The notes beneath the pieces were generated by a model, which saw only the letters and a list, made by a program, of their open reading frames with translations, made no database searches and was not told the origin of the DNA. The translations under genes and the position numbers were made by a program. Shown here piece by piece: positions 1 to 38,296 of a stretch of 50,282 nt of DNA. How positions within the stretch are numbered: position 1 is the first letter of the stretch; each line of letters starts with the position of its first letter. This DNA comes from Trichocoleus desertorum ATA4-8-CV12 (lineage in GTDB: Bacteria; Cyanobacteriota; Cyanobacteriia; FACHB-46): assembly GCA_019358975.1 (NCBI GenBank), contig JAHHIL010000044.1, positions 1 through 50,282 of the forward strand. Direction: 5' to 3'.

Positions 1-1
1 C

Positions 2-14181: not shown

Positions 14182-14202
14182 TGAGTGTTTTACTTCTCTA
14201 TA

Positions 14203-16013
14203 GGGGTAAAGGTAGCGAAGATACTGTTGGCGAATTCATCAGAGAAAAATGAAGCTTGGCGTCTAGCCTAGGATGAGAGTAAAGCTTTACAGCTCAGCAG
14301 AGGTGTAGCATGTCCATACAACCCCAGCCCATTCCTCCAGTTCCAGAGGATACCGCAGCAGTCGCACGAGCTGCTTTTCCCAAAGGTAACCTCTACCTTC
14401 AAATCCGCGATACACTTGGCAGCCTCTATCAAGACGAATCTTTTGTCTCACTCTTTTCCAGGCGAGGACAACCTGCACAATCTCCCTGGCGGTTGGCTTT
14501 AGTTTGTGTGATGCAGTTCATGGAAAATCTCTCTGACCGCCAAGCTGCTGATGCTGTTCGAGCTCGCATCGATTGGAAGTATGTCCTCAGTCTGCCACTC
14601 AGCGATCCAGGATTCAATTACTCGATTTTGAGTGAGTTTCGCGATCGCCTGGTGGCAGACAATGCTGAATCCCTGTTGCTAGACCCGTTGCTAGAACAAT
14701 TACGTGAGAAGGGATTACTCAAAGGACATCAGCGGCAACGCACCGATTCCACTCATGTTCTCGGGGCAATTCGAGTATTGAATCGCCTCGAAACATTGGG
14801 AGAGACCTTTCGAGCTGCGCTCAATAGCCTAGCGGTTGCGGCTTCAGATTGGCTAGAGCCACATTTACAAGCAGCTTGGTTTGAGCGCTATCATCGGCGC
14901 ACTGAGAACTATCGCTTGCCTAAATCAGACAGTGAACGCGAAGCATTGGGTCGCACGATAGGCCAAGATGGATTGACATTGCTAGATGTTGTTTATCATG
15001 CCTCTTCTCCAGAGTGGTTACGACATGTTCCAGCCATAGAAACCCTCCGACAAGTTTGGCTCCAGCAATTTTATGCACTAGGTGAAGATGGCGCTCTCCA
15101 ATGGCGATCGCCTAAAGACATGCCACCGTCTACGCTAGCGATACATTCTCCCTATGATGTGGCAGCCCATTACAGCACCAAACGAAGTGTGGATTGGGTG
15201 GGATACAAAGCTCACCTGACTGAAATCTGCGATGAGGCTTGCCCCCATTTCATCACTGGCGTTTATACAACGCTCTCCACAACCCCAGATGATGCAGTCG
15301 TTGATGCAGTTCATGAAGGCCTATCAGAGAGGACGCTGCTTCCCAAAGAACACCTGATGGATACAGGATATATAACCGCTGCCCATATCCTCAACAGTGA
15401 CAAAAAGTATGGTATTGACTTGGTTGGAGCAGTGCGAGGCAATCCCAGCTGGCAGAGTCGAAAAAACTCCAAGTTTACTTCAGACCAATTTGCCGTCAAT
15501 TGGAATGAGCAAACAGTAACCTGTCCTCAAGGACATCAGAGCATCATTTGGAGAGAAAAGATCGATAACCGGAGTTTGCCCGTCATCCATGTGCATTTTT
15601 CACAAGCTGATTGTCGCCGCTGCCCCGTTCGCAAACGCTGTACTCACTCAAAATATGCTCGCAGGCTGACACTACAACCGCAAGCCAAATATGCTGTTTT
15701 ACAGCAACGGCGGCAAGAGCAGGAAACCGCAGAGTTTAAGGAGCGCTATCAACAGCGAGCGGGAATTGAGGGAACGTTATCCCAGGGAGTCAGACGTTCG
15801 GGTCTACGGCAATCTCGCTATGTAGGATTAGCGAAAACGCATCTTCAGCATATTCTTACCGCAGTTGCTCTCAATTTGATTCGTCTGGATGCTTGGCTCT
15901 CAGGAGTTCCCTTAGCAAAAACTCGTACCTCTCGATTCCTGGAGCTTAAGTCTCGAGTTGCATAGATTTTTCTCTGATGAATTCGCCAACAGTATCTTCG
16001 CTACCTTTACCCC
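14203..16013 (+). mobile_element. IS1182-family insertion sequence, copy 1 (1811 bp)
   Basis: It has 48-bp perfect terminal inverted repeats (14203-14250 and 15966-16013), outermost bases GGGGTAAAGGTAGCGAAG. It encodes one intact transposase. The left flank is CTATA and the right flank ATCTA, so it has no matching target duplication of its own. Each flank matches the opposite flank of copy 2 (38297-40107), which indicates recombination between the copies. Confidence 0.92.
14310..15965 (+). CDS. IS1182-family transposase
   Basis: A 551-aa transposase, identical in protein sequence to the one at 38404-40059. It has the N-terminal DUF772-type region (SPWRLALVCVMQFMENLSDRQAADAVR, then FNYSILSEFRDRL). 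The DDE catalytic domain starts at RTDSTHVLGAIR and ends around RAGIEGTLSQGVRRSGL. Between them is a zinc-ribbon-like cluster (CRRCPVRKRCTHS). The stop codon sits immediately before the right terminal repeat. The only coding difference from copy 2 that I saw is silent (15939 C versus 40033 T). Confidence 0.94.
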   Translation: MSIQPQPIPPVPEDTAAVARAAFPKGNLYLQIRDTLGSLYQDESFVSLFSRRGQPAQSPWRLALVCVMQFMENLSDRQAADAVRARIDWKYVLSLPLSDPGFNYSILSEFRDRLVADNAESLLLDPLLEQLREKGLLKGHQRQRTDSTHVLGAIRVLNRLETLGETFRAALNSLAVAASDWLEPHLQAAWFERYHRRTENYRLPKSDSEREALGRTIGQDGLTLLDVVYHASSPEWLRHVPAIETLRQVWLQQFYALGEDGALQWRSPKDMPPSTLAIHSPYDVAAHYSTKRSVDWVGYKAHLTEICDEACPHFITGVYTTLSTTPDDAVVDAVHEGLSERTLLPKEHLMDTGYITAAHILNSDKKYGIDLVGAVRGNPSWQSRKNSKFTSDQFAVNWNEQTVTCPQGHQSIIWREKIDNRSLPVIHVHFSQADCRRCPVRKRCTHSKYARRLTLQPQAKYAVLQQRRQEQETAEFKERYQQRAGIEGTLSQGVRRSGLRQSRYVGLAKTHLQHILTAVALNLIRLDAWLSGVPLAKTRTSRFLELKSRVA

Positions 16014-17322: not shown

Positions 17323-18483
17323 TCAGGTATAGAGGATAGTTCTAATTGCCCCAATGGTACTGGATAAGACATGAGCTGCTGCCTCAACTTCCTCATTAGT
17401 CGTGAACTTACCTATTCCAATCCGGAGTGCACCCTCAATCAAAGATTCTGGAAGAGCCATTTCATGGAGAACATGAGAGGGAGTTTCAATACCAGTTGAA
17501 CAAGCTGCTCCTGTAGAAATTGCTATTTTTTGACGAACCCTAGCAATAATTGCACTGTTGGGAATGTTTGGAATTGAGATGTGAAGGTTTCCTGCTAGTC
17601 GATTCTCAGCATCCCCATTGACTATCAAATCGGTTACTTCTCTAGATAAGAGAGCTTGAAGACGGTCGCGCTTGCTTGCGATCGCCCTTTCATCCTCCTC
17701 CATCTCCAGCGATCGCAACCGGCAAGCTTCTCCCAACCCTACAATCCCTGGAACGTTAAGAGTGCCCGATCGCATTCCTCGCTGATGACCACCACCAAAT
17801 ATAAGTGGTTCCAATTGATAGCCTCTACGCACAGCTAGCGCTCCAACACCTTTAGGACCGTAGAGCTTGTGGGCAGAGATTGCTAGGTAGGTGATGCCCC
17901 ACTCTTCAAATTGCATGGGAATTTTACCGACTGCCTGAGAGCCATCACATAGAAAAGGAATGCCATAGCGTTGAGCAATTCGCCCAACCTTTTGAATAGG
18001 GTAAATGTTGCCAATCTCGTTGTTAGCTGCCATGACACAGAGCAGAGACATCCCCTTAGTGCAGACCTGCTCCAAATGTTCGAGGTCAAGCCTGCCTCTG
18101 GAATCTATTTGCAGATAAACTAGTTCAGCACAACCTCGCTTCTCTAAAGCGCGACAGGTATCAAGGACTGCTTTGTGTTCGATCGGCATTAAGCCAATTC
18201 GATGGGGGTTTGTGGAGTTAGGGGTTAGGCCCCCCTGAATTACTAGATTGATGCTTTCAGTTGCACCGGATGTCCAAACAATTTCCCCCGGTGAGGCTCC
18301 TATGAGGTCAGCAACTTGTTTAGCAGCTTGCTTAACAGCGGTCTCAGCGCGATCGCCCTGCTCATGATCAGTGCTGCTAGCGTTGCCAAACTCTGTAACC
18401 ATGTAATGGTAAATGCGATCAGCTACTCGTGGATCAACGGGAGTTGTTGCATGGTAATCAAGATAAATCACACTTCTAATCAC
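17323..18483 (-). CDS. sspA: Cysteine desulfurase of the phosphorothioation system (SspA/DndA)
   Basis: A 386-aa class V aminotransferase-fold enzyme of the IscS/NifS/DndA type. It takes sulfur from cysteine as a persulfide and passes it to the DNA-modifying enzymes. The PLP lysine is K206 in ISAHKLYGPKG, and the persulfide cysteine is C328 in STGAACSTG. The N-terminus YLDYHATTPVDPRV is typical. It starts with GTG, 9 bp after the stop of the DndB-like gene, and is the last gene of the operon. Its place beside sspBCD and a DGQHR gene marks it as the dedicated sulfur donor rather than housekeeping IscS. Confidence 0.9.
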   Translation of the reverse strand: MIRSVIYLDYHATTPVDPRVADRIYHYMVTEFGNASSTDHEQGDRAETAVKQAAKQVADLIGASPGEIVWTSGATESINLVIQGGLTPNSTNPHRIGLMPIEHKAVLDTCRALEKRGCAELVYLQIDSRGRLDLEHLEQVCTKGMSLLCVMAANNEIGNIYPIQKVGRIAQRYGIPFLCDGSQAVGKIPMQFEEWGITYLAISAHKLYGPKGVGALAVRRGYQLEPLIFGGGHQRGMRSGTLNVPGIVGLGEACRLRSLEMEEDERAIASKRDRLQALLSREVTDLIVNGDAENRLAGNLHISIPNIPNSAIIARVRQKIAISTGAACSTGIETPSHVLHEMALPESLIEGALRIGIGKFTTNEEVEAAAHVLSSTIGAIRTILYT

Positions 18484-18492
18484 CTATTAGTC

Positions 18493-19818
18493 TTAATCTT
18501 CTTCATCTTCCTCGTGAGGTTGATCATTTTGTCCAGACCAATTGATAAGTGGAAGTAGGGAAGCTTTTTTATTACCAATAGCATCACGATATTTCTGCTT
18601 GAGCTCACGAACTTTTACTGATGTTCTAAGCCCTAAAGCATGGTTGATCATTGTGGCGATGAGTGATCTCTCTTTTCTTCCACCAATAATGGAACGTGCT
18701 AATGGATTCCAGATTACACCTGCCCAGGGTGCATCATCAATATTCATTGAAACCTGAGTCATAATTGCTACAATTACATCTGGAATTGACTTTCTTTGAA
18801 TACCAGCTTGTTTGATAACCTCTGCAACAACATACTGACCAACTGGACGTAGAAAAACATTACCACCATAAATAAGTTTTTGATGGTCGTTTATAGTAGG
18901 TAAACCATCAGAATCAAGGAGAAGACGGAGATCACCCGGTTTTTTTCTCCCGCTTTTAACAGCATCAAATCCAGGGCAACAATCGAGCATCTTTTCCCAT
19001 ATTTCTTCTAAAAACAAATAATATTTATCCAAATCATCACTTGAAGGTCTAAATCTTTTGAAATCGTTATCAATTTGTAGACCCCCTTCATAAGCACTAA
19101 GCAGAATCTCGTTTACTTCATACAGAGAGGCAAGCGTTGTAATGTACGATTCATTTGCTTTACTTGGTGCAAGTTGCTTAGAGCCCAAAGTATTTAAAAC
19201 TAATCCTTTTAACACATTACTTTCTTTTACCAATCGACGTGAAATGATCGCTACTCCGTCATCTTCATCAATGGCAATATTCATACCAGAAGATGTTGGT
19301 TTTGCGCGCCGATTGAGAGTAGAAAATAATCTGCGAGTTCGTTGTAGCCCTTCCTTAGAATCCTCATGTTTAAGGATAATTACAGTAATCTCTTCTTTTG
19401 CCAAGTCAGGTTCTATCTTTATGGCTTCTTGGATAGACTTTAATCTGTGTTGTCCATCCAAAGCGTAGTAGACCTGACTTCCATCAAAACGAAGTAATCC
19501 AAAGCCATAACTGCCTCTGTCTTTATCATCTAGGAGTTCATGCTCATCAACTCTTACTGGTGAAAACTCTGGTTCTCCTCCATAAACAGCCACGACTAAA
19601 GCACCGTAGAATCGCTGCGGCTCATGGATAAGGTAAGGAACCATTTCTTTTTCAACACGATCTTGAATTGCCCTTTGGATTAAAGCATCAAGATCCTTAT
19701 CTGTATGAATTTCCTCTGCAAGCCTACACTCACGGGCGACTTTACCCAATTTCATTACGGTAACGTAGTATCTCCAATCACCCATCCGAGCTTGTAATGC
19801 TGGCACGTAATCTGGCAC
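18493..19818 (-). CDS. dndB: DGQHR-domain protein, DndB-like
   Basis: A 441-aa protein with the diagnostic motif YYALDGQHRLKSI (DGQHR at residues 121-125), an extended helical middle and an acidic tail (QPHEEDEED). DGQHR proteins are found with dnd clusters; DndB acts as a transcriptional regulator and influences where DNA is modified, with ATP- and DNA-binding activity reported for the family. Start is GTG 19818, with AGGAGA upstream. It sits 28 bp after the GIY-YIG gene and 9 bp before the cysteine desulfurase. A DndB homologue beside single-strand-type ssp genes is a mixed arrangement. Confidence 0.85.
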   Translation of the reverse strand: MPDYVPALQARMGDWRYYVTVMKLGKVARECRLAEEIHTDKDLDALIQRAIQDRVEKEMVPYLIHEPQRFYGALVVAVYGGEPEFSPVRVDEHELLDDKDRGSYGFGLLRFDGSQVYYALDGQHRLKSIQEAIKIEPDLAKEEITVIILKHEDSKEGLQRTRRLFSTLNRRAKPTSSGMNIAIDEDDGVAIISRRLVKESNVLKGLVLNTLGSKQLAPSKANESYITTLASLYEVNEILLSAYEGGLQIDNDFKRFRPSSDDLDKYYLFLEEIWEKMLDCCPGFDAVKSGRKKPGDLRLLLDSDGLPTINDHQKLIYGGNVFLRPVGQYVVAEVIKQAGIQRKSIPDVIVAIMTQVSMNIDDAPWAGVIWNPLARSIIGGRKERSLIATMINHALGLRTSVKVRELKQKYRDAIGNKKASLLPLINWSGQNDQPHEEDEED

Positions 19819-19846
19819 TTTTCTTTCTCCTAGACAAATGTACTTA

Positions 19847-20356
19847 TCAAAATGCTTTACCCCAGTGTTTCTGTCTATCAGGGATAATTTCGTTACATGG
19901 AGTTCGGCAACACATAAGAAGATGTTCTTCTACAGCATCTACATGAATTCGAGGTAGTTCAGCCCACCAAAAAACTAAGCGATTACGATATTTATTAAGC
20001 ATAAATACTACTTTTTTTCGACCCGTAATATTTTTTGCCTCTATAAGATAATCTTTATACCTTTCCGAAAGATATTGTTGAGCAGCTTTTCCAATGTACA
20101 AGGGAATATGAAGGTCTTCTGCAAAAGGCTTTCCTAATTTCGTTGAAAAGCAATACACTCCATACTTATTTGGGATGGAAGTTTGAGCATCACGAATAAA
20201 ATTACACTTTTGCCAGTTCAACTGAATAGCTTGCATCGCTACTGGAAACTCTTCTATATATTGTGGAAGCCATCGGAGGGTGAACTCGTAGTCTTTTGCA
20301 AATCGCCCTGCAATAGCTGCCTTCTGAGTAGCAAAATCATAGGGAGCATCAACCAT
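19847..20356 (-). CDS. GIY-YIG nuclease-domain protein in the phosphorothioation operon
   Basis: A 169-aa protein with all landmarks of the GIY-YIG catalytic core: NKYGVYCF, then PLYIGKA, the conserved Arg in LSERYKDYL, the metal-binding Glu in AVEEHLLMC and the Asn in TPCNE. About 60 N-terminal residues precede the nuclease domain. GIY-YIG enzymes cut DNA with a divalent metal. It lies between sspD and the DndB-like gene on the same strand, 329 bp after sspD. It could be the restriction arm missing from this island, or a repair or nicking accessory; that is inference. Confidence 0.75.
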   Translation of the reverse strand: MVDAPYDFATQKAAIAGRFAKDYEFTLRWLPQYIEEFPVAMQAIQLNWQKCNFIRDAQTSIPNKYGVYCFSTKLGKPFAEDLHIPLYIGKAAQQYLSERYKDYLIEAKNITGRKKVVFMLNKYRNRLVFWWAELPRIHVDAVEEHLLMCCRTPCNEIIPDRQKHWGKAF

Positions 20357-20685
20357 TTCCGTCTACCATTGGCGGGCTTCTAGTCCATTTTGCCCCGATT
20401 GCTTGGTAATGTAACCGTTGCCTCCAGGTAAGGATCTTTGGTTGTTACCGGGTTCCCTTCGGGGCACCCCCCGATTGCCCAGCATATTCGCCGCGATCGC
20501 TCAATCTTGAGTATTATGGCGAATTTGGTTGATCCAGGTGAGGAGCGATCACAAATTTGCCTTATCCAGTGAAGATTTAGGAAACAGCTATATGTTCTTA
20601 ATGGCAGGCTGCGGTTAAACTGACGTAGCCTATTTGCATTGAGGGGTTAGAGGGCTGAGTATCATAGCGTCTACTTCCTTGATCA
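20357..20685. other. Intergenic region between sspD and the GIY-YIG gene
   Basis: 329 bp without a credible gene. It contains a hairpin with a TTCG loop (GGGTTCCC/GGGCACCC around 20450-20469) that may terminate or attenuate the sspBCD transcript, and HIP1-type sites. It probably also holds a promoter for the GIY-YIG, dndB-like and sspA genes. No boxes are strong enough to name. Confidence 0.45.
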
Positions 20686-21492
20686 CTATAAGTGACATGC
20701 CAAACAGGGTAACGTGTCATCATCTTCATCGAGTACCGCTTCCAGCACTTCTGCCAACGGTTGATTGGGCTTTGTTTTTGCCTCTCGTACGATCGCTCGT
20801 TCATGGTCTGCAATAATTTCATCCTTACGTGCTAGCAATCCCAGCAATGTTTCGCCCTGCGTCCAAGTGTAGGTTCGACCATCGCTATGGTTTTGCTCGT
20901 AGGCGATCGCCTTGGCAAATAGGTCAGGATGCTCCTGCGCTAGCATCACCCACTCATACTTCCGCTGGAAGAAGCAGAAGTAACATCCTGAGCGACTGCG
21001 CCAGCGGTAATAGTCTGGTAAGCCAATGCCACTTTCCTCTAACAACCGAATAATATCTGCCTTAACTAGCCCATGTTCCTTAAAGGGGTAACGGGCTTGA
21101 ATTGTTGGCTTTGTCGAAATATAGCCTTCCCGGTGTTCATCTGCACGAATGCCAATATAGCTGATGGCATCGTCATCACCGATAAACTCCTCCAAAGGCT
21201 TAATCTTCATTTGTTTTGTACACCATCGCACTTGAGGAGATGGCAAAACGCCTCCATACACCTCTAACCAATGGTCAAAACCGCGATCGGCACTTAAGCG
21301 AATAATTTTGATACCCAGCCGAGCCTCAATGCGATCGAGATAATCATAAGTTTCTGACAGTTCCTTGTGGGTATCACAGAAAAAATACTCCATCGGCAGG
21401 TCAGGGTACTTTTGTCGCATCAGCACCGCTAGGGCAGTACTATCCTTACCCCCTGAAAGCCCCAGAATATGTCGAATGGGCTGCTTCACCAT
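20686..21492 (-). CDS. sspD: PAPS-reductase-family ATP pyrophosphatase (SspD/DndC-like)
   Basis: A 268-aa adenine-nucleotide alpha-hydrolase of the PAPS reductase family. The PP-loop is SGGKDS (residues 13-18). Cysteines in VRWCTKQMK and RSGCYFCFF fit the Fe-S cluster site described for DndC. It activates the DNA backbone phosphate or carries the sulfur during phosphorothioation. It is about half the length of DndC and similar to SspD of the single-strand Ssp system, which agrees with the DUF4007 and ATPase genes upstream. It starts 5 bp after the sspC stop, so it is the third gene of a tight operon. Confidence 0.86.
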   Translation of the reverse strand: MVKQPIRHILGLSGGKDSTALAVLMRQKYPDLPMEYFFCDTHKELSETYDYLDRIEARLGIKIIRLSADRGFDHWLEVYGGVLPSPQVRWCTKQMKIKPLEEFIGDDDAISYIGIRADEHREGYISTKPTIQARYPFKEHGLVKADIIRLLEESGIGLPDYYRWRSRSGCYFCFFQRKYEWVMLAQEHPDLFAKAIAYEQNHSDGRTYTWTQGETLLGLLARKDEIIADHERAIVREAKTKPNQPLAEVLEAVLDEDDDTLPCLACHL

Positions 21493-21497
21493 CTCCC

Positions 21498-24400
21498 TTA
21501 ATCCACCACCTTCGTTTTCCGTTTACCCCGCCTCTGACGGACTTCCTTCAATTCGTCGGGGGTTTGTACCTGCAACACCTCTCTTGCCAATTTAGCAATC
21601 AAAGCTTGCCGCAGTTTAGCATCGTTCCGGAGGGTCGGCTTGTCTAAGATCTCATCCACTAACCGATTCAGTTGTTCTTCCTGGGTCTGGTCAATCCAGA
21701 CAACCTGGTTTAGTTCGTGTCCGTCTGATTTGGTGACGGTAAGCCGATATGCCTCAAAGCCTTCATGGTCAGTCGCTGCAATATCTTTTTGTAAGGCTTC
21801 TAGTCGCTTAAACTGTCGAGCAACATCATTCAGCTTCAATTCAAAGGCAGCGCGATCGTCATCGCTCCAAGTATGGGCAGGCTTATCTGCCAAAATCATC
21901 ATCAGGGATTCTAACCACTCCGTATCTGCCAACATGGTATCGCTCGCCGCTAGCGTAAAGCGCCTCAGCATTGGCTCCAAGCAGCGATCGACCAAGTAGT
22001 TGGCTCTCACACGCAAATCAGGCCGCAAATGCTCTAGGTTACTACGGACTCCGAAAGCAGCATGAAGCAACTGCCGACCAGTACTCAGGAGATTTTCATA
22101 GGTAATCTCTAATTCATGAAGTGCTTTAACCAACCGTTTGCGGAAGGTTCGTGCCGCCGATTCATCATTTGGATCAGCATGCCGAATGGGAGCCAACCCA
22201 CAGGCTTGAGGCAGACTAGTAAACAATAGTTTATCTGGCTCTTGAGCTGTTTGCAACGTTTTCAGGACTGCCTGAGCTTCAGCACTCAGTTGTTGAGTTT
22301 TCAGGGTGTAGGCTGGCAGCTTCTTGACGAACTGGAACAACGGCTTGGCGATCGCCAAGAGCGAAGTGTTCCGTACTCCCGCAGGGACTCGACTCCGCCA
22401 AATAGCTTCCAATTCTTGAAAGACCTGGGATCGCAGCCCTGCCATTTCAAACGATTTAACGGCAAACCGTCCGGGTTGTTTCACTAACAACTCAAAATGA
22501 GGAGCCGTCAACACCGGAACAAACGTCCCATCATGATAAAGCCCGACATCATCAACGTGGTAAAGCAGCATAGCAGCTAACAGCACTGGGATTACCCCTG
22601 GTTTAACGCCATAGGGTGGAGCCCCTAGCAAGGCGTATAGCTGATCGAGGCTGCGCGGTTGTTCAGCAGATTTCAAACAAAAGGATTCAACTGACTGCCA
22701 GAGACTTGATAAATCTGTCCTGCCATTGCCTTTTTGTTTGGCAGAACGATTTGCAATTGGCGGATAGAAACCCCATTCTCCATTCTCCTGGCGGTGAATC
22801 CCTGGCTCTGCCAGCACCGAGTAATACATGCTCACTTCAGGACCATAGCCCTTCAGTCCCAATTTCTCCTGATCTTCATGGTTCAGCATGCCTTCAATCA
22901 ACTCACGCCGCGCCTTTGCCCCTTGAGAGGTAAGTTCTCGCCGGTTAATCAATTCATTCCAAAGAGTAGGGCTATGGCAATAGACCTTCTCACACACCTC
23001 CGATAATGCTGCATTGAGATCGGCGCTATCTCGAATCTCCTGCTGTTCTCCTAAAAACCAGGAAAAGCTTTCAGAATTAGCGGGATCAAGTGCCTGAGTT
23101 AATGTCTCATCCATCAAGTTTTCTGCTTGCACCAACCGCTGCCGCACTTCCCGCCGAGCAACCCCATCCGTTTGCAATTCTGAAGCGGTTGATTGAATCT
23201 TTTCTAAGGCGGCAAATTCGATCGCGCGGTCGCGCAAGGTTTTGAGATGAGCCGTATTAACCACAATAAGAGGCTTACCATCTTTAGTGGTAGAAGGGGG
23301 AGCTTCTACAAGAGGTTGTGCCTCCATCCAGTACACGATCAAGCCGTCATAATCTGGCTTAGATACTTGAAGGGTGGATAGGTCATGAGTCTTATCTCCA
23401 TATCGCCGCTCAAAATAGCGGAGGGTTCCCACTCGGTAACTGTGGCGTTGAGCAACCAATGGTTTTAAGGCACGCACCCGTGACAAGATCTCAACTAGCG
23501 ATCCCCGTTCTTGTTCAAAATACTGGTCGATCGCAATCTGAACATTGAAATCAGATCCCTCCCAGATTCGCAGTTCATCCAACTGCTTACGGTAAGTAAT
23601 TAGGTTTTTCTCTAAAAGGGTTTGAATCGCCGTTTGCCAAGGGTTATCGCTAGTCGTTTCATCAGGCGACTCACACAATGGCAAGATTGACAGGGCTTGA
23701 GTTGCCCGTAGTGCCCCTGCCGATGTAATTAAATTAAGCGTACCAATCGTCTTGAGTGCCTGAATTACTTCAGGTGACAGATCCATTCGACGGCTGGCAT
23801 CTGCAACAACCCCCTGAACCTCTAGCCACTTCTGAACATTGGGACGAGATGACAACCCCATCCCTGCTGACTCTACAAAATAGTCGTAAACCTGATGGAT
23901 TTTTAGCGTTGGAATTAAATTTTTATTGAGAGCCGTTGAATCTAAGAATTGCTTAAAGGAATATGGCTCAGAACTCGTCAGGAAGGTAAAGAGAGAGCGA
24001 TCGTTTTGAGCATACCTCGTACACAGCTGGGGTAATACCAGAGAGGTCAGTGGATGAAGTGGATAAGCCTCTGCTAGTACCGCAGACGACAAATCACTTA
24101 ATTCTAGGTGCTCAGCTAGATGCTCAAACCATACCGTTGCTCGTTGCTGAATTAATTCTTTCAAAGCGCCTGCTTCGTTATGGATAATGGCTTGTCCCAG
24201 TAAACGAGTCATCTGTTCCGGCGATTCTGTGAAGGGAATATCCTCAAATCGCCCGTGAATTTTTGACCATTCTTTCCGCTCACTGGAAGCTAACCGTTCT
24301 CCGTAATCCCCAAAGGATTGGTGCAACACCCCAACGAGATACACCTGATAAGGCGTACGTTCAGGGAGTTCTGCGATTTGCTGCAACAGGTATAAGTCTG

Positions 24401-25043
24401 CAACGCCTTGATGTTGAGCTGCAAACTCCAACGTCTTGCCTAACTCATCAATCAGGAGTAGGACATCCGTCTTTGCTGCCTGCGCCACTGCCTGAATCAG
24501 TTGCAGAACTTGCTTTTCCTCAATCGAGTGACCAGCGGCAAGCTCTATCTCTAAGTCTACTAAATCAGCCAATATCTCTGGCTTCTTGCGGCTCCTTCGC
24601 CAAAATATTTCAACCCCTCGCCTTAATGCACGGACGATGGTATGACTGAGAGGCTCCCGCTGAGCAGTGCTAACTGCTTGCACGAGTCCCCGCCGTGGCA
24701 ATCCATCCGTAAGCGCTTGTAGCTCAGGACTGGCTGATCCCAGTGCCCGCTCTGCGATTGTCAACGCTTTTTGTCGCACAGGGCCAGCCTCTGACGCACA
24801 AAGCCCTGCCCAAAAGTGAGCAAATGCTGATTTACCTGTACCGTAAACCCCAGTCAGTGTCCAGGCACGTTGAGGGCTATTTTTAGTAAAAGCAGGTAAC
24901 ATGCGCCGTAACGCATCCACTGCTCGTTCCGTCACAATGTATCCTTCTACAGCATCTGGCAATTCCAGATCTCGCTCTAAATTAACCGAGCGAGCATAGC
25001 GACGGTTGAGGCTAAAGTACTGCGATAAAAATTTTTGAGCCAT
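21498..25043 (-). CDS. sspC: Large ATPase of the phosphorothioation system (SspC-like)
   Basis: A 1181-aa P-loop ATPase. Walker A is TGVYGTGKSAF (about 64-74) and Walker B DVLLLIDELGK (about 193-203), followed by a sensor-like region (VYLVGVLHQSFGDYGERL). The remaining roughly 900 residues are mostly helical without a domain I recognise. Identity as SspC rests on size, the P-loop and the exact position between the DUF4007 gene (5-bp gap) and the PAPS-reductase gene (5-bp gap), the SspB-C-D order. SspC is thought to supply ATP-driven action on DNA during modification. Confidence 0.82.
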   Translation of the reverse strand: MAQKFLSQYFSLNRRYARSVNLERDLELPDAVEGYIVTERAVDALRRMLPAFTKNSPQRAWTLTGVYGTGKSAFAHFWAGLCASEAGPVRQKALTIAERALGSASPELQALTDGLPRRGLVQAVSTAQREPLSHTIVRALRRGVEIFWRRSRKKPEILADLVDLEIELAAGHSIEEKQVLQLIQAVAQAAKTDVLLLIDELGKTLEFAAQHQGVADLYLLQQIAELPERTPYQVYLVGVLHQSFGDYGERLASSERKEWSKIHGRFEDIPFTESPEQMTRLLGQAIIHNEAGALKELIQQRATVWFEHLAEHLELSDLSSAVLAEAYPLHPLTSLVLPQLCTRYAQNDRSLFTFLTSSEPYSFKQFLDSTALNKNLIPTLKIHQVYDYFVESAGMGLSSRPNVQKWLEVQGVVADASRRMDLSPEVIQALKTIGTLNLITSAGALRATQALSILPLCESPDETTSDNPWQTAIQTLLEKNLITYRKQLDELRIWEGSDFNVQIAIDQYFEQERGSLVEILSRVRALKPLVAQRHSYRVGTLRYFERRYGDKTHDLSTLQVSKPDYDGLIVYWMEAQPLVEAPPSTTKDGKPLIVVNTAHLKTLRDRAIEFAALEKIQSTASELQTDGVARREVRQRLVQAENLMDETLTQALDPANSESFSWFLGEQQEIRDSADLNAALSEVCEKVYCHSPTLWNELINRRELTSQGAKARRELIEGMLNHEDQEKLGLKGYGPEVSMYYSVLAEPGIHRQENGEWGFYPPIANRSAKQKGNGRTDLSSLWQSVESFCLKSAEQPRSLDQLYALLGAPPYGVKPGVIPVLLAAMLLYHVDDVGLYHDGTFVPVLTAPHFELLVKQPGRFAVKSFEMAGLRSQVFQELEAIWRSRVPAGVRNTSLLAIAKPLFQFVKKLPAYTLKTQQLSAEAQAVLKTLQTAQEPDKLLFTSLPQACGLAPIRHADPNDESAARTFRKRLVKALHELEITYENLLSTGRQLLHAAFGVRSNLEHLRPDLRVRANYLVDRCLEPMLRRFTLAASDTMLADTEWLESLMMILADKPAHTWSDDDRAAFELKLNDVARQFKRLEALQKDIAATDHEGFEAYRLTVTKSDGHELNQVVWIDQTQEEQLNRLVDEILDKPTLRNDAKLRQALIAKLAREVLQVQTPDELKEVRQRRGKRKTKVVD

Positions 25044-25048
25044 TTACC

Positions 25049-25966
25049 TCACCTCGTCTGGTAATAATCTTGCAAAATTTGCTCCGCCAGAATCAGAGGA
25101 TCTTCTGTAAAGGAGAATTGAATTAATCCAGCTGTGTCCGATAGACTAATTGGCTCATGCTGTTGGGCAACTTGCTCAATTGCATTACACAAAGCACTTT
25201 CTGATAGCTTGAAGGCTAACCCTGGGCTACCTGCTTCATATAGTAAGCGAGAGACGGCGATCGTACCCTGCCCTTGCCGATCCTGGGCTGCAAACTCTAG
25301 ACAAGCAGAAACGACGACAGCTGGGGGTAAATTTCTTTTCGTCCCTACCCGGAACGTGTAGATACGAGTATCGCCAGCGGTATGCAACAGCCCTAACTCG
25401 GTAAAAGGGCAATCAATGGAGTCTTCTGTAAACCCCGATTTGCTTTGCTGCTCTACATACATTTTTAAGAGGCAACGAACGTCTTTTTGAAACGAAGACG
25501 AAGCAGTTCGTAGCCCTTGCTGTTTCTGGTAATAGTTCTCCAAAGCAACGAGCAGGTCTTGTTCAGTAAATTCGACTGAACGGAATAAATTAAAAGTGAA
25601 ATACCAGGTAGTTGCATAGCAAGGGAGTTTAAGCAACTGCCAGTGCAGCAACCAGAGCGAGGCGGAATCCTCTAAAAATGGGTCCCATCCTGTGTCGGCT
25701 AGTAACCGCTGTCCAAAGTCTGTCGGTTGATCATCCTGTAACAGCTTAAAAGCCTGTTCCCAATAGCGGATGGAGCGAACCATGTTTTTTCCAACCCCAA
25801 GCTGAATGGGAGCGCCCTCATTCAAAAACACCCTTGGATCTTGAATGGCACAATCGAAGCCCTTCTTCAGCCAGCCAAACCGGGGGTGAAAAGTTTCGTG
25901 GCGAGCAAAGACACTCGATTGACGAGTATCAACCCTTCCAAGATCAAGACTGATTTGCTCTACCAT
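25049..25966 (-). CDS. sspB: DUF4007 protein, SspB-like DNA nickase of phosphorothioation
   Basis: A 305-aa member of the DUF4007 family, shown by SVFARHETFHPRFGWLKKGF near the N-terminus followed by LGVGKNMVRSIRYWEQAF. SspB, the DUF4007 protein of the Ssp system, nicks one DNA strand as the first step of single-strand phosphorothioation. This gene is first in the sspB-sspC-sspD operon and divergent from the associated methyltransferase. DUF4007 is absent from double-strand Dnd clusters, so it marks this island as Ssp type. Confidence 0.87.
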   Translation of the reverse strand: MVEQISLDLGRVDTRQSSVFARHETFHPRFGWLKKGFDCAIQDPRVFLNEGAPIQLGVGKNMVRSIRYWEQAFKLLQDDQPTDFGQRLLADTGWDPFLEDSASLWLLHWQLLKLPCYATTWYFTFNLFRSVEFTEQDLLVALENYYQKQQGLRTASSSFQKDVRCLLKMYVEQQSKSGFTEDSIDCPFTELGLLHTAGDTRIYTFRVGTKRNLPPAVVVSACLEFAAQDRQGQGTIAVSRLLYEAGSPGLAFKLSESALCNAIEQVAQQHEPISLSDTAGLIQFSFTEDPLILAEQILQDYYQTR

Positions 25967-26184
25967 AGCCCTTTTTATAGAACCGATGTACTTTATTGTG
26001 TACTACCCGTAGTCTGTTGAGAAGTTCCTTATGCTATTGGTAAACTCAGCCAGAGGAATTTTACAAACTACCATGATCGCTTTATATTCAAGCGGTTTCT
26101 TGGACAGAGTTTCACATCATACCAAGTTCAGTAGCATAATAGGTTCCAGTCGGGTTCAAGCAAAACTGCCAAATTACTCAATCA
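25967..26184. promoter_or_regulatory. Divergent promoter region between sspB and the methyltransferase gene
   Basis: It holds two GTACT direct repeats 12 bp apart (25988-25992 and 26000-26004). The second overlaps the palindrome ACTAC-CC-GTAGT (26002-26013), about 25-50 bp upstream of sspB. TTGTGTACT here also occurs at 37996-38004 upstream of the 642-aa recombinase. It is a candidate operator for the DndB-like protein or another plasmid regulator; that is inferred. Confidence 0.4.
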
Positions 26185-28263
26185 ATGCCCTGTGGTCTGG
26201 CTCAATTCGAAGCGATCGTGATTACCTGTCAACGAAGTAAGGTAGGTAAGCTGTTGCCCGATGCCCTATACGTTCACATCTCGGCCCTACAGGCATTAGA
26301 TCCGCTTCTGCAAGCCTATGAAAGCGAGGCAAGGCAGATTGCCTCTTCTCCTAAGGGGATTACCGTAGTCAAATTCAGTACAGCGAAGCCGACCGTTTCT
26401 TACCTGTTCTATCCAGAATTTGACACTGATCCTCACCCTGCCCTTCAATCAAGCATCCAAGTGAATCTACAAACCCGTGAGGTGAAGCACCGGGACTATG
26501 GGGATGCCGATAACCCGTTTATTCTGCATCGCAAGGAAACTTTTGTTACGATTAATTATCCCTATTACCAGCAATTTGCAGCACTAACTCGGCAAGAAGA
26601 AGCTCTGGGCCTGCTTGACAATCCTCGGGCGATTGGCACTCGCTTGGTTTGGGAAGAGCGGCTGGCTCAGTTCAAGGTGGCATTCCAGGGGCATACCTTG
26701 GTTCATCGATCGCTTCTTAATGCCCAAGCTGCCCAAGTCAAAATCGATCGCCACAAAGCTGCTATTAGCCGCAATGACTTGTCTAAACCTGTTCGTCTGG
26801 CATTGGAAGCTGGACTGTTGAAGCAGAGCATGACATTCTTCGACTACGGTTGTGGTCAGGGAGGTGATGTTGAGCGGGTCACTAAGTTGGGTTATGAGTG
26901 TTCTGGTTGGGACCCCCATTATCGTCCGGATGTAGCTCAAGTTGCTGCTGATGTCATCAATTTAGGCTACGTGATCAATGTCATTGAATCTCAGGCAGAG
27001 CGTCGAGAGGCGTTGGTTCAAGCTTGGGATCTGACTCAGCAAGTACTGATTGTGGCTGCGCAGGTTCTCATCGCTCAGGGGAATAGCCAAATTGCCTACG
27101 GCGATGGGATCATTACCAGCCGTAATACGTTTCAGAAGTATTACGACCAGGATGAACTGAAGATTTATATTGACCAAGTGCTGGGAGTTGACTCTATCCC
27201 AGTAGCTTTGGGGATTTACTTTGTTTTCCGGGATGAAGCTCAGGCACAAAGTTTTCGAGCCTCCCGATTCCGATCGCGCGTTAGTGTTCCTAAGGTTCAG
27301 CTCAGCAATAAGCGGTTTGAAGATTACAAGGAACTGCTAACTCCCCTAATGACTTTTTTCACTGAGCGGGGGCGGTTGCCAACCCTAGAAGAGTTGCCTG
27401 AAACTGCAACACTCAACAGTGAGTTTGGCAACCTAAAGCGGGCCTTCCAGATCGTTCTGCAAGCTACAAACCCGCAAGAGTGGGATGCGATTAGCGATCG
27501 CCGCCGTCAAGATTTGTTAGTTTATTTGGCGTTGAGCCATTTTAGTCGTCGTCCCAAGCTACGGGATTTAACACCCGTGGTTCAGAATGACATCAGGAGT
27601 CTGTTCGGGGGCTATCAACAAGCTTGTGCTGCGGCAGATCTAATGTTGATGACCTTAGGCAATCTGGAGGTAGTTGAGGAACGCTGCAAGAGTAGTGCGA
27701 TCGGGCAAAAGCGACCGAATTCACTGTGGGTTCATGTGTCGGCGATCGAGGCACTTGATCCTTTGCTTCGGCTCTACGAAGGTTGTGCCTCTCGCACGAT
27801 CGGTCGCCCCCAGGAAGCCAACGTCGTTAAATTTCACTTCCGCAAGCCTAAGATTTCTTATTTGTTCTATCCAGCCTTTGACACTGATCCTCATCCTGCG
27901 CTGCACACGAGCATGCAGATTGATCTGCGGGATTTGCACGTTCACTACCGTGACTATGACCCAAAGGACAATCCACCCCTACTGCATCAGAAGGATCTGC
28001 TCGTCACGACCGAATATGCTCTCTATGCGAAGTTTGCTAAGCTAACTCGTCAAGAATCAGATTGGGGGTTACTGGATGATATAAGGAGCATTAGCGATCG
28101 CCGAGGTTGGCAAAAGTGCTTAGAGGAGCATTGTGCTGAATTAAAGGGGCATCGTGTATTGTGGCGAAAAGATGCTGACCCCTATCAGGTGAAGTTAGTG
28201 CGATCGGCTATTCGTGCAAAGCAGGCAGGGCGAACAGCATCTGCCGCAGAATCTGCTGGCTGA
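26185..28263 (+). CDS. DNA phosphorothioation-associated putative methyltransferase
   Basis: This 692-aa protein resembles the Dnd-associated putative methyltransferases (TIGR04096 type). The central Rossmann methyltransferase domain has the SAM motif FFDYGCGQGGDV (about 218-229). It is flanked by two copies of one domain: residues about 5-175 and about 492-655 share LYVHIS/LWVHVS, ALDPLL, VVKF, SYLFYP, FDTDPHPAL and HRDY. Homology reaches back to about residue 6, supporting the start at 26185 despite no clear ribosome site. The target base and the link to sulfur modification are unknown; it may add a second mark or protect sites. Transcribed divergently from sspBCD. Confidence 0.82.
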   Translation: MPCGLAQFEAIVITCQRSKVGKLLPDALYVHISALQALDPLLQAYESEARQIASSPKGITVVKFSTAKPTVSYLFYPEFDTDPHPALQSSIQVNLQTREVKHRDYGDADNPFILHRKETFVTINYPYYQQFAALTRQEEALGLLDNPRAIGTRLVWEERLAQFKVAFQGHTLVHRSLLNAQAAQVKIDRHKAAISRNDLSKPVRLALEAGLLKQSMTFFDYGCGQGGDVERVTKLGYECSGWDPHYRPDVAQVAADVINLGYVINVIESQAERREALVQAWDLTQQVLIVAAQVLIAQGNSQIAYGDGIITSRNTFQKYYDQDELKIYIDQVLGVDSIPVALGIYFVFRDEAQAQSFRASRFRSRVSVPKVQLSNKRFEDYKELLTPLMTFFTERGRLPTLEELPETATLNSEFGNLKRAFQIVLQATNPQEWDAISDRRRQDLLVYLALSHFSRRPKLRDLTPVVQNDIRSLFGGYQQACAAADLMLMTLGNLEVVEERCKSSAIGQKRPNSLWVHVSAIEALDPLLRLYEGCASRTIGRPQEANVVKFHFRKPKISYLFYPAFDTDPHPALHTSMQIDLRDLHVHYRDYDPKDNPPLLHQKDLLVTTEYALYAKFAKLTRQESDWGLLDDIRSISDRRGWQKCLEEHCAELKGHRVLWRKDADPYQVKLVRSAIRAKQAGRTASAAESAG

Positions 28264-28348
28264 TTTCAAGCTCTACCAATAATGACTCGGATGCCATCTG
28301 TTATTTCCTAGGTTAAAAATTGAGGAAGATATGCCCTAAAAACACGAT

Positions 28349-30697
28349 ATGGCTGATTCGCCCAAATCCACCGAAGCATCCTCTCCTTCCCCAGAGCCTA
28401 CCTCCGAATCTAACAAACCTAGCCCGGAGCGTCGCTTTATTCAACGGCAGGTGGTACAGCCTTTAATTCAGTGGATGCCATTGGGAGGCAGTGGCTGGCT
28501 ATTTGCTAGCTTTTGGTTAAAGCAAGAATGGACACAAGTTCTCCTTACCTTTCCCGTCACGATTGTGACGGCAGTATGGGCAGCTTACAGCAAGAACTTT
28601 GTTGAGCGGTTGTCAGAAATTTATGCAGAAAAGGGCAAACAAGATGCCGAAGTCTTAAATCAGTTGCTAGCCAACCTGGATGAGACAATTAAGTGGCAGT
28701 TTTCAGGCTTTGAAGCGAAATATCTGGAACTGCAAGCCAAACCTTGCCAAGAATACATAACCGAAGGCTTCAACCCAGATAAAACTGCGATCCCTATGTT
28801 GGAGGAAGTCTTCGTCCCGCTCCAGCTCAATGGTTATCTGATTGAGGGTAATGGACGCTTTATTGAGAACAGAAAAGATTCTGCAAAAGCAAACCAATCG
28901 TCTGAAGGAATTAATATTTGGGATTTAATTCTCAGATCACGCAAGAATCCAACATTTCGGCAAATGGCGATTCAGGCACAGGGAGGATTTGGCAAAACCA
29001 CATTGTTACGCCACATTGCCTTGATCTATGGGCAAGGAAAATACCGCCGCTACCGGGCACCAAAACTCATTCCTTTCTTGCTGTACTTGCGTGATTGGCG
29101 AGACAAACTATCACAGCCTGAGTTGCCAACTTTGCCCGATCTAATTAAGAACCATTTTCTACCCAAGTTATCGCCCAACAATCCACTCAAGCCCCCACCC
29201 GCATGGGTTGAAAACTTGCTGGAGCAGGGGGGAGCATTGGTGATGTTTGATGGCTTTGATGAGTTAGCTGAAGACCAACGTCAACGAGTTAGCCAGTGGA
29301 TTAGCCAACAAATGCAGGAGTACCATCGCACCACATTCATCATTACATCTCGCCCTGCCGGATTTAAAGACTATGTTGCCAAACGCCCGGCTGTACCACT
29401 ATTTGTCCAGAAGTTTAAGTCTTACCAACAAGAGCGATTCATCAAGCGGTGGTATCTCTGCCAAGAACGTTGTGCCCGCAGTGAGAAGCAGGCCAACCAA
29501 GCAAAAGAGGCCGCTGAGCGCAATGCTCAAAAGTTGTTGACTCAACTGCAAGACCCTGATCGCCCTGAACTGCAAGAGATGGCCGAAAACCCACTCTTGC
29601 TCAATATGCTGGCGACATTTCACCGTTTTGATCCGGGCACTGAGTTACCCAAACGGCGCATTGAACTCTACCGAGGGATCTGCAAACTACAACTCGAAGA
29701 TCGCCCTAGAGCGCGGGGCATTCCCATGCTGTTGCCTTATGAAAAAAGTCATCAGGTATTGCAATCGTTAGCACTGGCGATGGTGAAACGGTCTTCCCCC
29801 CGTGTTTCTTGCCAGTCGTTGATCAGTTTTCTAAAAAAACATCCCCTATTAAAACAAGAAGATGTTGGGGCAGAAGCCTTGCTCAAGCAAATGGTGCAGA
29901 TCAGCGAGTTATTAGTAGAGCGAGAACTAGGCTACTATGAGTTTCCGCATCTCAGCTTTCAAGGCTATTTTGCGGCCAGCTTTTTAGCCCAAAATCATAT
30001 CAAATCACTCGCTCTAGTGAGAGAAAACTGGGATAAAGCTTCATGGCGGGAAACGATCTTGCTTTACAGCGCTCAATTGCCCCCTCGGTTGATGACTGAT
30101 GTGATTCAACAAGTCTGCGATTTAGGCAAAGAAGCTGCTCAACTGGCCTATGACTGCTTGCGCGAGTATCGCAACCCAGAGAAGCTTGACCCAGGCTTAG
30201 AACAAGAACTCAGAGCACTAACTAGCACGGTACAAACCCTCCGCTACACAAAACTGGAGGAATATCTGAAAAGTAGGCACTGGAAAGAGGCCGATCAAGA
30301 AACCTATCGGCTGATGATTACGACAGTTGGCAGGACGGAGGGAGAGTGGTTTGAACCAGAAGAATTATTGACTTTTCCGCGTGATGAGTTACGGGCGATT
30401 GATGCCCTTTGGGTGAAATACAGCCATGGCATGTTTGGCTTTAGCGTCCAAAAGCAGATTTATGTAGGGTGTGGTGCTAAACTAGACGGCAAATTTCCTG
30501 GTGATGAAATCTGGTGGGAGTTTGGCAATCTCATGGGTTGGCGTAGGAATGGTAAATGGCTGAGTTACTCCCAAGTAGTCGGAACTTCTTTCTCCCTTCC
30601 CAATACAATTCTCCCTGTTATAGGTACTCTGTACTACGGCGTCGATGCGTTGGTGTCCGCGGGGGCATGCTCTCTTCTCTCGCACAAAGACTTGTAA
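28349..30697 (+). CDS. Membrane-anchored NACHT ATPase with C-terminal GUN4 domain
   Basis: A 782-aa protein. Residues 1-30 are a Ser/Pro-rich tail. Hydrophobic segments at about 38-56 and 62-79 suggest membrane anchoring. NACHT Walker A is QGGFGKTTLL (about 211-220), Walker B LVMFDGFDELAE (about 297-308), then the arm LQEMAENPLLLNML and the winged-helix box FPHLSFQGYFAA. The last 140 residues are a GUN4 domain: WKEADQETYRLM, LRAIDALWVKYS, FGFSVQKQIY and LMGWR. GUN4 binds porphyrins and activates Mg-chelatase; here it probably serves as sensor or signalling module. It follows the methyltransferase gene by 85 bp on the same strand, which suggests membership of the phosphorothioation island. Confidence 0.87.
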   Translation: MADSPKSTEASSPSPEPTSESNKPSPERRFIQRQVVQPLIQWMPLGGSGWLFASFWLKQEWTQVLLTFPVTIVTAVWAAYSKNFVERLSEIYAEKGKQDAEVLNQLLANLDETIKWQFSGFEAKYLELQAKPCQEYITEGFNPDKTAIPMLEEVFVPLQLNGYLIEGNGRFIENRKDSAKANQSSEGINIWDLILRSRKNPTFRQMAIQAQGGFGKTTLLRHIALIYGQGKYRRYRAPKLIPFLLYLRDWRDKLSQPELPTLPDLIKNHFLPKLSPNNPLKPPPAWVENLLEQGGALVMFDGFDELAEDQRQRVSQWISQQMQEYHRTTFIITSRPAGFKDYVAKRPAVPLFVQKFKSYQQERFIKRWYLCQERCARSEKQANQAKEAAERNAQKLLTQLQDPDRPELQEMAENPLLLNMLATFHRFDPGTELPKRRIELYRGICKLQLEDRPRARGIPMLLPYEKSHQVLQSLALAMVKRSSPRVSCQSLISFLKKHPLLKQEDVGAEALLKQMVQISELLVERELGYYEFPHLSFQGYFAASFLAQNHIKSLALVRENWDKASWRETILLYSAQLPPRLMTDVIQQVCDLGKEAAQLAYDCLREYRNPEKLDPGLEQELRALTSTVQTLRYTKLEEYLKSRHWKEADQETYRLMITTVGRTEGEWFEPEELLTFPRDELRAIDALWVKYSHGMFGFSVQKQIYVGCGAKLDGKFPGDEIWWEFGNLMGWRRNGKWLSYSQVVGTSFSLPNTILPVIGTLYYGVDALVSAGACSLLSHKDL

Positions 30698-31016: not shown

Positions 31017-31622
31017 CTAAATCAGGAACCTGGTAGATGCAGGCTTGATCAACTCTACCCAATGTTCAAGTCCTTTTCGCGTTGGTACTCCCTTATCTGT
31101 AAATGTCCAGATGTTTCGATTTTGCTTCTGACTTTGGCTAATATGAATGGGGCGATCGCTTCCATAGTAGTACAGCGAATCAAATGGTAATTGCTGTTCC
31201 AAAATCCACTCCACAAGGCGATTGCTCTCCAACCCCGCAATCTGAAAATCACAGGCAGCACCGAGGCGATCGCAGTAATACTTGCCATTTCGGTTTTTCT
31301 CGTGAGCCATGTGCTGATCACGGCTAGGGTCAACTCGACCATTCTTGATGCCTGTTTCTGGATCCCTTTGACTTAGAAAGCGCTTCAAATCTGTTGAGCA
31401 GAACCCATAGGTTAGATGGAATTGCTCCCTGCTAAAGTGATCAATAATGGGGTCAATAATCCATTGGCAAAGTGATTGTAACGCTGGAATTGTTTCTTCC
31501 AGATTTTCGGGGTATGGGCCAATTTGACTAGAGTACTTCTGGTAGGTCTGCGTGCAGGTACAAAACTCTTGTAGAGTTAGATATTTTCCTAAAACAACTT
31601 TAGGAAGTAACAAGTTTTCCAT
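31017..31622 (-). CDS. M15-like peptidase-fold protein
   Basis: A 201-aa protein with the layout of zinc peptidases of the M15/hedgehog fold. A helical N-terminal part (LTLQEFCTCTQTY) precedes a metal-site-like series: Asp/His in DQHMAHEKN, Asp in LGAACDFQIAG, and a final His in RPIHISQSQ. M15 enzymes cleave D-Ala peptides in the cell wall, but no signal peptide is present, so a cytoplasmic or phage-lysin-like role is possible. It follows parB by 18 bp on the same strand, and thus may be the last gene of the parA-parB operon. It faces NACHT-GUN4. The catalytic assignment is uncertain. Confidence 0.55.
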   Translation of the reverse strand: MENLLLPKVVLGKYLTLQEFCTCTQTYQKYSSQIGPYPENLEETIPALQSLCQWIIDPIIDHFSREQFHLTYGFCSTDLKRFLSQRDPETGIKNGRVDPSRDQHMAHEKNRNGKYYCDRLGAACDFQIAGLESNRLVEWILEQQLPFDSLYYYGSDRPIHISQSQKQNRNIWTFTDKGVPTRKGLEHWVELIKPASTRFLI

Positions 31623-38239: not shown

Positions 38240-38296
38240 GAATTAGAAGCACTTTTTCAGTAACCAGTGCTGGTCTTTACTTCGTTGCCTGATCTA

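What the first reader, a model, noticed from the sequence alone, without database searches (positions are those of the whole stretch)
17323..30697. Single-strand phosphorothioation island without a recognised restriction partner
sspB (DUF4007), sspC and sspD are tightly coupled, and sspA sits in a second operon with a DndB-like DGQHR gene and a GIY-YIG gene. No SspE (DUF262/DUF1524), SspFGH or DndFGH genes are present. The island mixes Ssp modification enzymes with a Dnd-type regulator and carries a GIY-YIG nuclease, a methyltransferase and a NACHT-GUN4 ATPase instead. This may be a new configuration of phosphorothioation-dependent defence.
Basis: partly seen in the sequence, partly recalled or inferred. 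Interest (0 to 1): 0.85.

Follow-up and report, generated by a model that had tools for sequence, protein, structure and literature searches.

The report
Phosphorothioate DNA-marking island with GIY-YIG cassette
A cyanobacterial plasmid carries a complete enzyme set for marking DNA with sulfur, but none of the known cutting partners; in that place sits a small nuclease-like gene paired with a DndB-like gene, a pair that recurs beside sulfur-marking genes in other bacteria and may be an undescribed way of using the mark against phages.

Summary
Observation confirmed. Window 17323-25966 encodes a complete Ssp phosphorothioation (PT) set with intact catalytic motifs, on a complete circular ~50 kb cyanobacterial plasmid. 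No SspE, SspFGH or DEAD-GHKL-PLD module was found on the plasmid or in the 99.98% complete genome; the one chromosomal DUF262 protein is GmrSD/Orf5-like and has Phe where SspE/DndI have the PT-sensing Tyr. Interpretation partly supported. Lack of a known effector is common for sspBCD (about 84% in one survey), and the methyltransferase is a known PT-associated family (TIGR04096). What is new is the GIY-YIG + DGQHR gene pair: in 101 SspC loci, 16 of 16 such GIY-YIG genes lie directly upstream of a DGQHR/DndB-like gene. Alphaproteobacterial relatives sit in Ssp, SspFGH and Dnd loci. The pair occurs alone (6 loci including the window) or beside SspE, SspFGH or DEAD-GHKL-PLD, so it is a portable PT-linked cassette, not simply a replacement for SspE. 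NACHT-GUN4 linkage is real but rare (2/101). An unreported ~190-aa gene (31017-31622) travels with the methyltransferase. Best reading: Ssp modification plus a candidate GIY-YIG/DGQHR restriction module; the function is inferred, not shown. New variant of a known kind.

The parts
17323..18483 (-). sspA: cysteine desulfurase of the DndA/SspA family (sulfur donor)
   Evidence: PADLOC DndA E 2.9e-137 and SspA E 1.5e-136; PF00266; PLP Lys motif SAHK and Cys loop GAACS intact
18493..19818 (-). DGQHR/DndB-like gene, partner of the GIY-YIG gene
   Evidence: PF14072 111 bits; TIGR03187 94.2 bits (cut-off 58.85); TIGR03233 DndB only 81.5 of 328; DGQHR motif present
19847..20356 (-). GIY-YIG-like nuclease gene, 28 nt upstream of the DGQHR gene
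   Evidence: invariant G66-x-Y68, Y87-x-G89, R99, E143 across cyanobacteria and alphaproteobacteria; profile recovers a PF20815 GIY_YIG_2 protein; no direct Pfam hit
20357..20685 (-). 329-nt gap between sspD and the GIY-YIG gene; sspE fills this place in L072
   Evidence: tblastn finds no SspE, SspFGH, DEAD, GHKL, PLD or HNH remnant
20686..21492 (-). sspD: PAPS-reductase-like PP-loop sulfurtransferase
   Evidence: PADLOC SspD E 1.2e-116; SGGKDS motif
21498..25043 (-). sspC: BrxC-like AAA+ ATPase
   Evidence: PADLOC SspC 1475 bits against BrxC 475; Walker A GVYGTGKS, Walker B LLIDE
25049..25966 (-). sspB: DUF4007
   Evidence: PF13182 E 9.4e-100; PADLOC SspB E 1e-121
26185..28263 (+). DNA phosphorothioation-associated putative methyltransferase (TIGR04096) with an N-terminal copy of its own C-terminal domain
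   Evidence: NCBIfam 880.8 bits, cut-off 150; two matches to the same model in one gene; SAM motif DYGCGQG
28349..30697 (+). NACHT-GUN4 STAND-type ATPase
   Evidence: PF05729 and PF05419; same position in L055, 50% identical
   Evidence: in 12 of 92 loci with enough upstream DNA, 11 of them with the methyltransferase, Fisher p 1e-5; no Pfam or PDB sequence match, no PDB fold match with E <= 0.001

Best explanation
This is a plasmid-borne Ssp-type DNA phosphorothioation island. SspA supplies sulfur, SspD transfers it, and SspB and SspC find and open the DNA site, marking one strand (inferred from homology). Between sspD and sspA, where relatives carry a restriction effector, it carries a two-gene cassette: a small GIY-YIG nuclease and a DGQHR (ParB/DndB-superfamily) protein. 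The mechanism I think most likely is that the DGQHR protein binds DNA and/or nucleotide and gates the GIY-YIG nuclease, so that the pair nicks or cuts DNA lacking the PT mark, as an alternative to, or an addition to, SspE, SspFGH or DEAD-GHKL-PLD. The divergent methyltransferase, the 190-aa protein and NACHT-GUN4 form a second, exchangeable accessory block. Shown here: gene content, intact motifs, absence of SspE/SspFGH/DEAD-GHKL-PLD from the plasmid and of SspE, SspH and the GHKL ATPase from the host genome, conserved GIY-DGQHR pairing and its linkage to PT systems. Inferred: that DNA is actually modified, that the GIY protein cuts DNA, and that the PT mark controls it.
For: Complete Ssp set with intact motifs. 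Complete circular plasmid and 99.98% complete genome without SspE, SspH or the paraMORC-like GHKL ATPase; for SspH and GHKL the same query rang in other genomes. The only DUF262 protein is Orf5/HEC-06-like and has PLFQR where the SspE proteins whose N-terminus was captured have PxYQR; the Tyr is the PT sensor of SspE/DndI (PMC11662687). All 16 GIY genes of three sequence clusters lie 0-61 nt upstream of a DGQHR gene; Fisher p 7e-11 for co-occurrence among 65 loci, not corrected for relatedness. Homologues 22-26% identical, with the catalytic residues kept, sit next to a DGQHR gene in Roseobacter sspABCD (L187), Rhizobium SspFGH (L185) and Rhizobium dndBCDE (L186) loci. The cassette has lower G+C than its own sspBCD in 16 of 16 loci, as expected of a separately acquired unit. 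Six loci have GIY-DGQHR and no other effector class tested.
Against: The cassette coexists with SspE (L072), SspFGH (L185) and DEAD-GHKL-PLD (L187 and other loci), so it may be an accessory rather than the effector. DGQHR genes also occur without the GIY gene (5 of 20), so the DGQHR protein has some use alone. The window GIY protein matches no Pfam GIY-YIG model directly, its AlphaFold model is uninformative (pLDDT 39.5), and its profile does not align with the other two GIY clusters. No biochemical data exist for this plasmid.
Confidence: 0.45

Rival explanations
1. Solitary modification: the island lost its effector (SspE or DEAD-GHKL-PLD slot empty) and now only marks DNA; GIY-DGQHR is a leftover or a control module that limits or repairs PT sites. 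PT then serves as protection, regulation or antioxidant.
For: The close relative L072 has sspE exactly between sspD and the same GIY-DGQHR-sspA block; the window has only 329 nt there. Cyanobacterial dnd loci lack restriction genes and an antioxidant role has been proposed (PMC8569181). DndB in Dnd systems is a negative regulator of PT (PMC10853773).
Against: No effector remnant in the gap. GIY-DGQHR motifs are intact, and effector-free GIY-DGQHR loci occur in other lineages and GIY clusters (L042, L044, L049, L096, L137), which random effector loss would explain less simply.
Confidence: 0.3
2. GIY-DGQHR is a backup or suicide module present with all PT effector types, triggered when phage interferes with PT marking; the primary effector of this island is the NACHT-GUN4 / methyltransferase / 190-aa block.
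For: GIY-YIG (URI) nucleases beside Dnd modification genes have been proposed as restriction components or suicide effectors (PMC10853773). The block 190-aa gene - NACHT-GUN4 - methyltransferase recurs intact in L055.
Against: NACHT-GUN4 occurs in only 2 of 101 loci; most methyltransferase-bearing loci lack it, and L055 has SspFGH anyway.
Confidence: 0.15
3. The effector acts in trans from the chromosome (the GmrSD-type DUF262 protein or an unknown protein).
For: The genome has one DUF262/DUF1524 protein with DGQQR and GmrSD_C parts; DndI, of similar size, is a PT effector (PMC11662687).
Against: It scores as Orf5/HEC-06, matches SspE mainly over the N-terminus, has Phe for the PT-sensing Tyr, and lies alone among housekeeping genes.
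Confidence: 0.1

Closest known systems
SspABCD-SspE (Xiong et al. 2020, as cited in PMC8092258)
   Same: sspA, sspB (DUF4007), sspC and sspD homologues; locus L072 has the same GIY-DGQHR-sspA block plus SspE
   Different: no SspE in the window or host genome; GIY-DGQHR cassette, methyltransferase, 190-aa gene and NACHT-GUN4 present
SspBCD-SspFGH (PMC8092258)
   Same: same modification module; a GIY-DGQHR pair lies directly before SspFGH in Rhizobium K1/93 (L185)
   Different: no SspF, SspG or SspH in the window; no SspH in the host genome
Dnd systems with accessory nucleases (PMC10853773)
   Same: PT modification loci with URI (GIY-YIG) nucleases and ParB-superfamily DndB already reported for Dnd; GIY-DGQHR found next to dndBCDE in Rhizobium NXC14 (L186)
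   Different: here the modification core is SspBCD, not DndCDE, and the DGQHR protein is below the DndB cut-off
DNA phosphorothioation-associated putative methyltransferase TIGR04096
   Same: window protein is a full member (880.8 bits, cut-off 150)
   Different: nothing essential; N-terminal duplication of the C-terminal domain is common in cyanobacteria
paraMORC/GHKL - SF2 helicase - PLD restriction neighbourhoods (PMC2292703)
   Same: likely the family behind the DEAD-GHKL-PLD module in about a third of the surveyed Ssp loci
   Different: absent from this window; GHKL ATPase absent from the genome

Membership tests
Ssp PT modification module (SspABCD) | SspB (DUF4007), SspC, SspD in one operon with SspA nearby | tested here: met
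   PADLOC and Pfam scores and gene order
Ssp PT modification module (SspABCD) | PT actually present in DNA, single-stranded, at a CCA-type motif | not testable with these tools
   needs LC-MS/MS or PT mapping
SspABCD-SspE defence system | SspE (DUF262-DUF1524 with PT-sensing Tyr) | tested here: not met
   none on the plasmid; own-genome DUF262 protein is Orf5/HEC-06-like with Phe
SspBCD-SspFGH defence system | SspF, SspG, SspH | tested here: not met
   no match in the window; SspH query silent in own genome, rings in G119
Dnd system | DndC, DndD, DndE | tested here: not met
   island proteins score as Ssp; best DndC score for the PP-loop protein is 29.7 bits of 290.4
Dnd system | DndB equivalog | tested here: not met
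   TIGR03233 81.5 bits, cut-off 328; DGQHR domain TIGR03187 is met
DndFGH restriction module | DndH present | tested here: inconclusive
   TIGR03237 silent in own genome, but silent in all control genomes too
GIY-YIG nuclease superfamily | GxY, YxG, catalytic Arg and Glu in order | tested here: met
   invariant across 7 homologues down to 22% identity; ordered pattern in 6 of 200,000 shuffles
GIY-YIG nuclease superfamily | match to a Pfam GIY-YIG model over its cut-off | tested here: not met
   no hit at E 10; family profile does recover a PF20815 member
GIY-YIG nuclease superfamily | predicted or solved GIY-YIG fold | tested here: inconclusive
   AlphaFold pLDDT 39.5 from 4 sequences
TIGR04096 PT-associated methyltransferase | score over curated cut-off | tested here: met
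   880.8 of 150 bits
BREX type 4 (BrxC, BrxP, DUF4007 with PglZ and BrxL) | BrxC and BrxP rather than SspC and SspD; PglZ and BrxL | tested here: not met
   SspC 1475 against BrxC 475 bits; SspD 387 against BrxP 43 bits; none of the ten scanned proteins scores as PglZ or BrxL

The most novel reading that the evidence does not exclude
GIY-YIG + DGQHR is a complete, undescribed PT-dependent restriction module that can couple with either Ssp or Dnd marking and works alone in this plasmid: a further class of PT effector besides SspE, SspFGH, DndFGH and DndI.
Probability: 0.3. Interest if true: 0.75.

Novelty: new variant of a known kind. Interest (0 to 1): 0.5.

Why it matters
By BLAST most sspBCD loci have no known effector (PMC8092258), and cyanobacterial PT systems were described as lacking restriction genes (PMC8569181). 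This locus and its relatives give a small, testable candidate: two genes, found across two phyla, that travel with both Ssp and Dnd marking. The survey also suggests that many cyanobacterial Ssp loci do carry effector candidates (DEAD-GHKL-PLD, an HNH_4 protein, GIY-DGQHR) that BLAST with SspE and SspFGH misses.

Tried and rejected
AlphaFold of the GIY protein: too few homologues (pLDDT 39.5), so no fold search was made. The 190-aa gene was first taken by eye for an M15-type peptidase (QHMAHE...GAACDF...IHIS); Pfam, PHROGs (best an endolysin model, E 0.07), PDB sequences and PDB folds gave no support, so 'M15' is only a working label. c135/c136 in L002/L125 looked like a further GIY-DndB pair by position but are not GIY-YIG or DGQHR proteins. 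A search for the GIY family in viral contigs found nothing. In 386 cyanobacterial genomes the GIY family was found over most of its length only in the own genome; the broader profile's best other hit (L192) is a canonical GIY-YIG gene in an unrelated locus. A composite-transposon reading of the two IS copies was considered; crossed flanks fit a cointegrate at least as well. DndFGH absence was searched with one model but without a working positive control.
Full report
The island. The window is contig C44 of a 6.06 Mb, 99.98% complete genome that belongs with cyanobacteria. Its first and last 127 bases are identical, so it is a complete circular molecule of about 50.16 kb, a plasmid with ParA/ParB genes. 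On the minus strand lie sspB, sspC and sspD with 5-nt gaps, then after 329 nt a GIY-YIG-like gene, a DGQHR gene and sspA; on the plus strand, divergent from sspB, lie a methyltransferase and a NACHT-GUN4 gene. Catalytic motifs of SspA, SspD, SspC, the DGQHR protein, the GIY protein and the methyltransferase are intact.

Absence of known effectors. tblastn of SspE, SspF, SspG, SspH, DEAD, GHKL, PLD and HNH proteins from related loci finds nothing credible in the window, including the sspD-GIY gap. In the own genome the SspE query finds only the N-terminus of a chromosomal DUF262 protein. That protein scores as Orf5/HEC-06 (E 1e-191) far above SspE (3e-22) and carries PLFQR, whereas the SspE proteins of related loci whose N-terminus was captured carry PxYQR; the Tyr is the PT-sensing residue of SspE and DndI (PMC11662687). 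The SspH and GHKL queries are silent in the own genome and ring in other genomes searched in the same call. One DndH model was silent everywhere, including controls, so DndFGH absence is not proven.

Survey. 80 SspC loci from GTDB genomes, 33 regions around DUF4007 hits and other places in a sample of 386 genomes of the phylum and seven plasmid loci gave 101 SspC loci after removal of duplicates. Of the 65 with at least 8 kb downstream of sspC, 18 have SspE or SspFGH, 24 have a GHKL ATPase (usually with a DEAD helicase and often a PLD protein) without those, 9 have only an HNH_4 protein, 6 have only GIY-DGQHR (window, L042, L044, L049, L096, L137) and 8 have none of these. The loci were drawn by similarity to the window's SspC, many are related, and gene calling was simple, so these are descriptive counts.

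The GIY-DGQHR cassette. The window's GIY gene has three close homologues (61-66% identity; L044, L049, L072), all downstream of sspD (in L072 with sspE between) and directly upstream of a DGQHR gene. Two further clusters of GIY-YIG-like proteins, related to each other but not detectably to the window's, occupy the same place. All 16 GIY genes lie 0-61 nt upstream of a DGQHR gene; the co-occurrence has Fisher p 7e-11 without correction for relatedness. In all 16 loci the cassette has lower G+C than sspBCD of the same locus, as expected of a separately acquired unit. tblastn on plasmids found the pair in Rhizobium K1/93 directly before SspFGH (L185); DGQHR searches found it in Rhizobium NXC14 before a methyltransferase and dndBCDE-dndA (L186) and in Roseobacter litoralis between sspABCD and PLD-GHKL-DEAD (L187). 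Aligned with these, the window protein keeps G66, Y68, Y87, G89, R99 and E143, and the family profile recovers a PF20815 GIY_YIG_2 protein. This supports the GIY-YIG assignment although no Pfam model hits the window protein directly.

What follows. The cassette is tied to PT marking of both kinds but to no single effector. It can be alone, or beside SspE (L072), SspFGH (L185) or DEAD-GHKL-PLD. The simplest functional reading is an additional PT-linked nuclease module that may suffice alone; the alternative is a control or backup module whose main effector has been lost here. Sequence data cannot separate these. GIY-YIG (URI) nucleases near Dnd genes were already noted and proposed as restriction components or suicide effectors (PMC10853773), and DGQHR proteins were linked to PT genomes earlier (PMC3226654). 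The new parts are the fixed two-gene pairing, its recurrence in Ssp loci and its occurrence across Ssp and Dnd; no held paper found was seen to describe it.

Accessory block. The methyltransferase is TIGR04096 (880.8 bits, cut-off 150), present over cut-off in 104 of 386 cyanobacterial genomes; it lies near ssp in 30 of 92 loci with enough upstream DNA. A conserved ~190-aa protein (31017-31622) accompanies it in 11 of 12 cases (p 1e-5). NACHT-GUN4 occupies the same position between these two genes in L055 (50% identity), where the methyltransferase is 87%, the 190-aa protein 75%, SspD 77%, SspB 59% and SspC 53% identical to the window's; the pieces have evolved or moved at different rates. NACHT-GUN4 linkage is therefore real but rare (2 of 101).

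Verdict. Observation confirmed; interpretation partly supported; new variant of a known kind (Ssp-based PT system) with a recurrent, functionally untested GIY-YIG/DGQHR cassette.

Noticed in passing
window 31017-31622 (-): Conserved ~190-aa protein found beside the TIGR04096 methyltransferase in cyanobacterial Ssp loci; weak motif resemblance to M15 peptidases, no significant family or fold match.
   Followed up: partly
window 14201-16013 and 38295-40107: Two direct IS copies (DDE_Tnp_1_6/DUF772 transposase), 2 mismatches in 1813 bp, bracket the island. Outer flanks share CTATA and inner flanks share ATCTA, which suggests the plasmid is a cointegrate of two replicons joined by IS recombination (or a composite transposon).
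   Followed up: partly
window 1-127 and 50156-50282: Exact 127-bp terminal overlap: the contig is a closed circle cut at a low-complexity repeat region.
   Followed up: yes
[quoted passage not shown]
   Followed up: no
window 10673-13144 (+): Second NACHT protein with N-terminal HTH and NCH2 domain on the same plasmid.
   Followed up: no
L006:13815-14981 and 25 of 101 loci: An uncharacterised ~390-aa protein with a Cas9-like HNH_4 domain sits after sspC/sspD in a quarter of the Ssp loci; candidate PT effector.
   Followed up: no
L003:19404-23961 and similar loci: DEAD helicase - GHKL (paraMORC-like) ATPase - PLD module, with the GHKL ATPase in 26 of 101 Ssp loci; likely another PT effector not covered by PADLOC Ssp models.
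   Followed up: partly
L055:14447-16698: A GHKL ATPase and a small GIY-YIG-like gene (PF01541 E 0.0055) directly precede SspFGH.
   Followed up: no
L003:16340-17023: The GIY-YIG gene of Trichormus variabilis plasmid A is split by an in-frame stop relative to L043, so it may be a natural knock-out.
   Followed up: no
L005, L039, L064, L082, L097: A second, divergent SspB-SspC pair with a ~146-aa gene (F17) follows sspD, sometimes with BrxL: mixed Ssp/BREX type 4-like loci.
   Followed up: no
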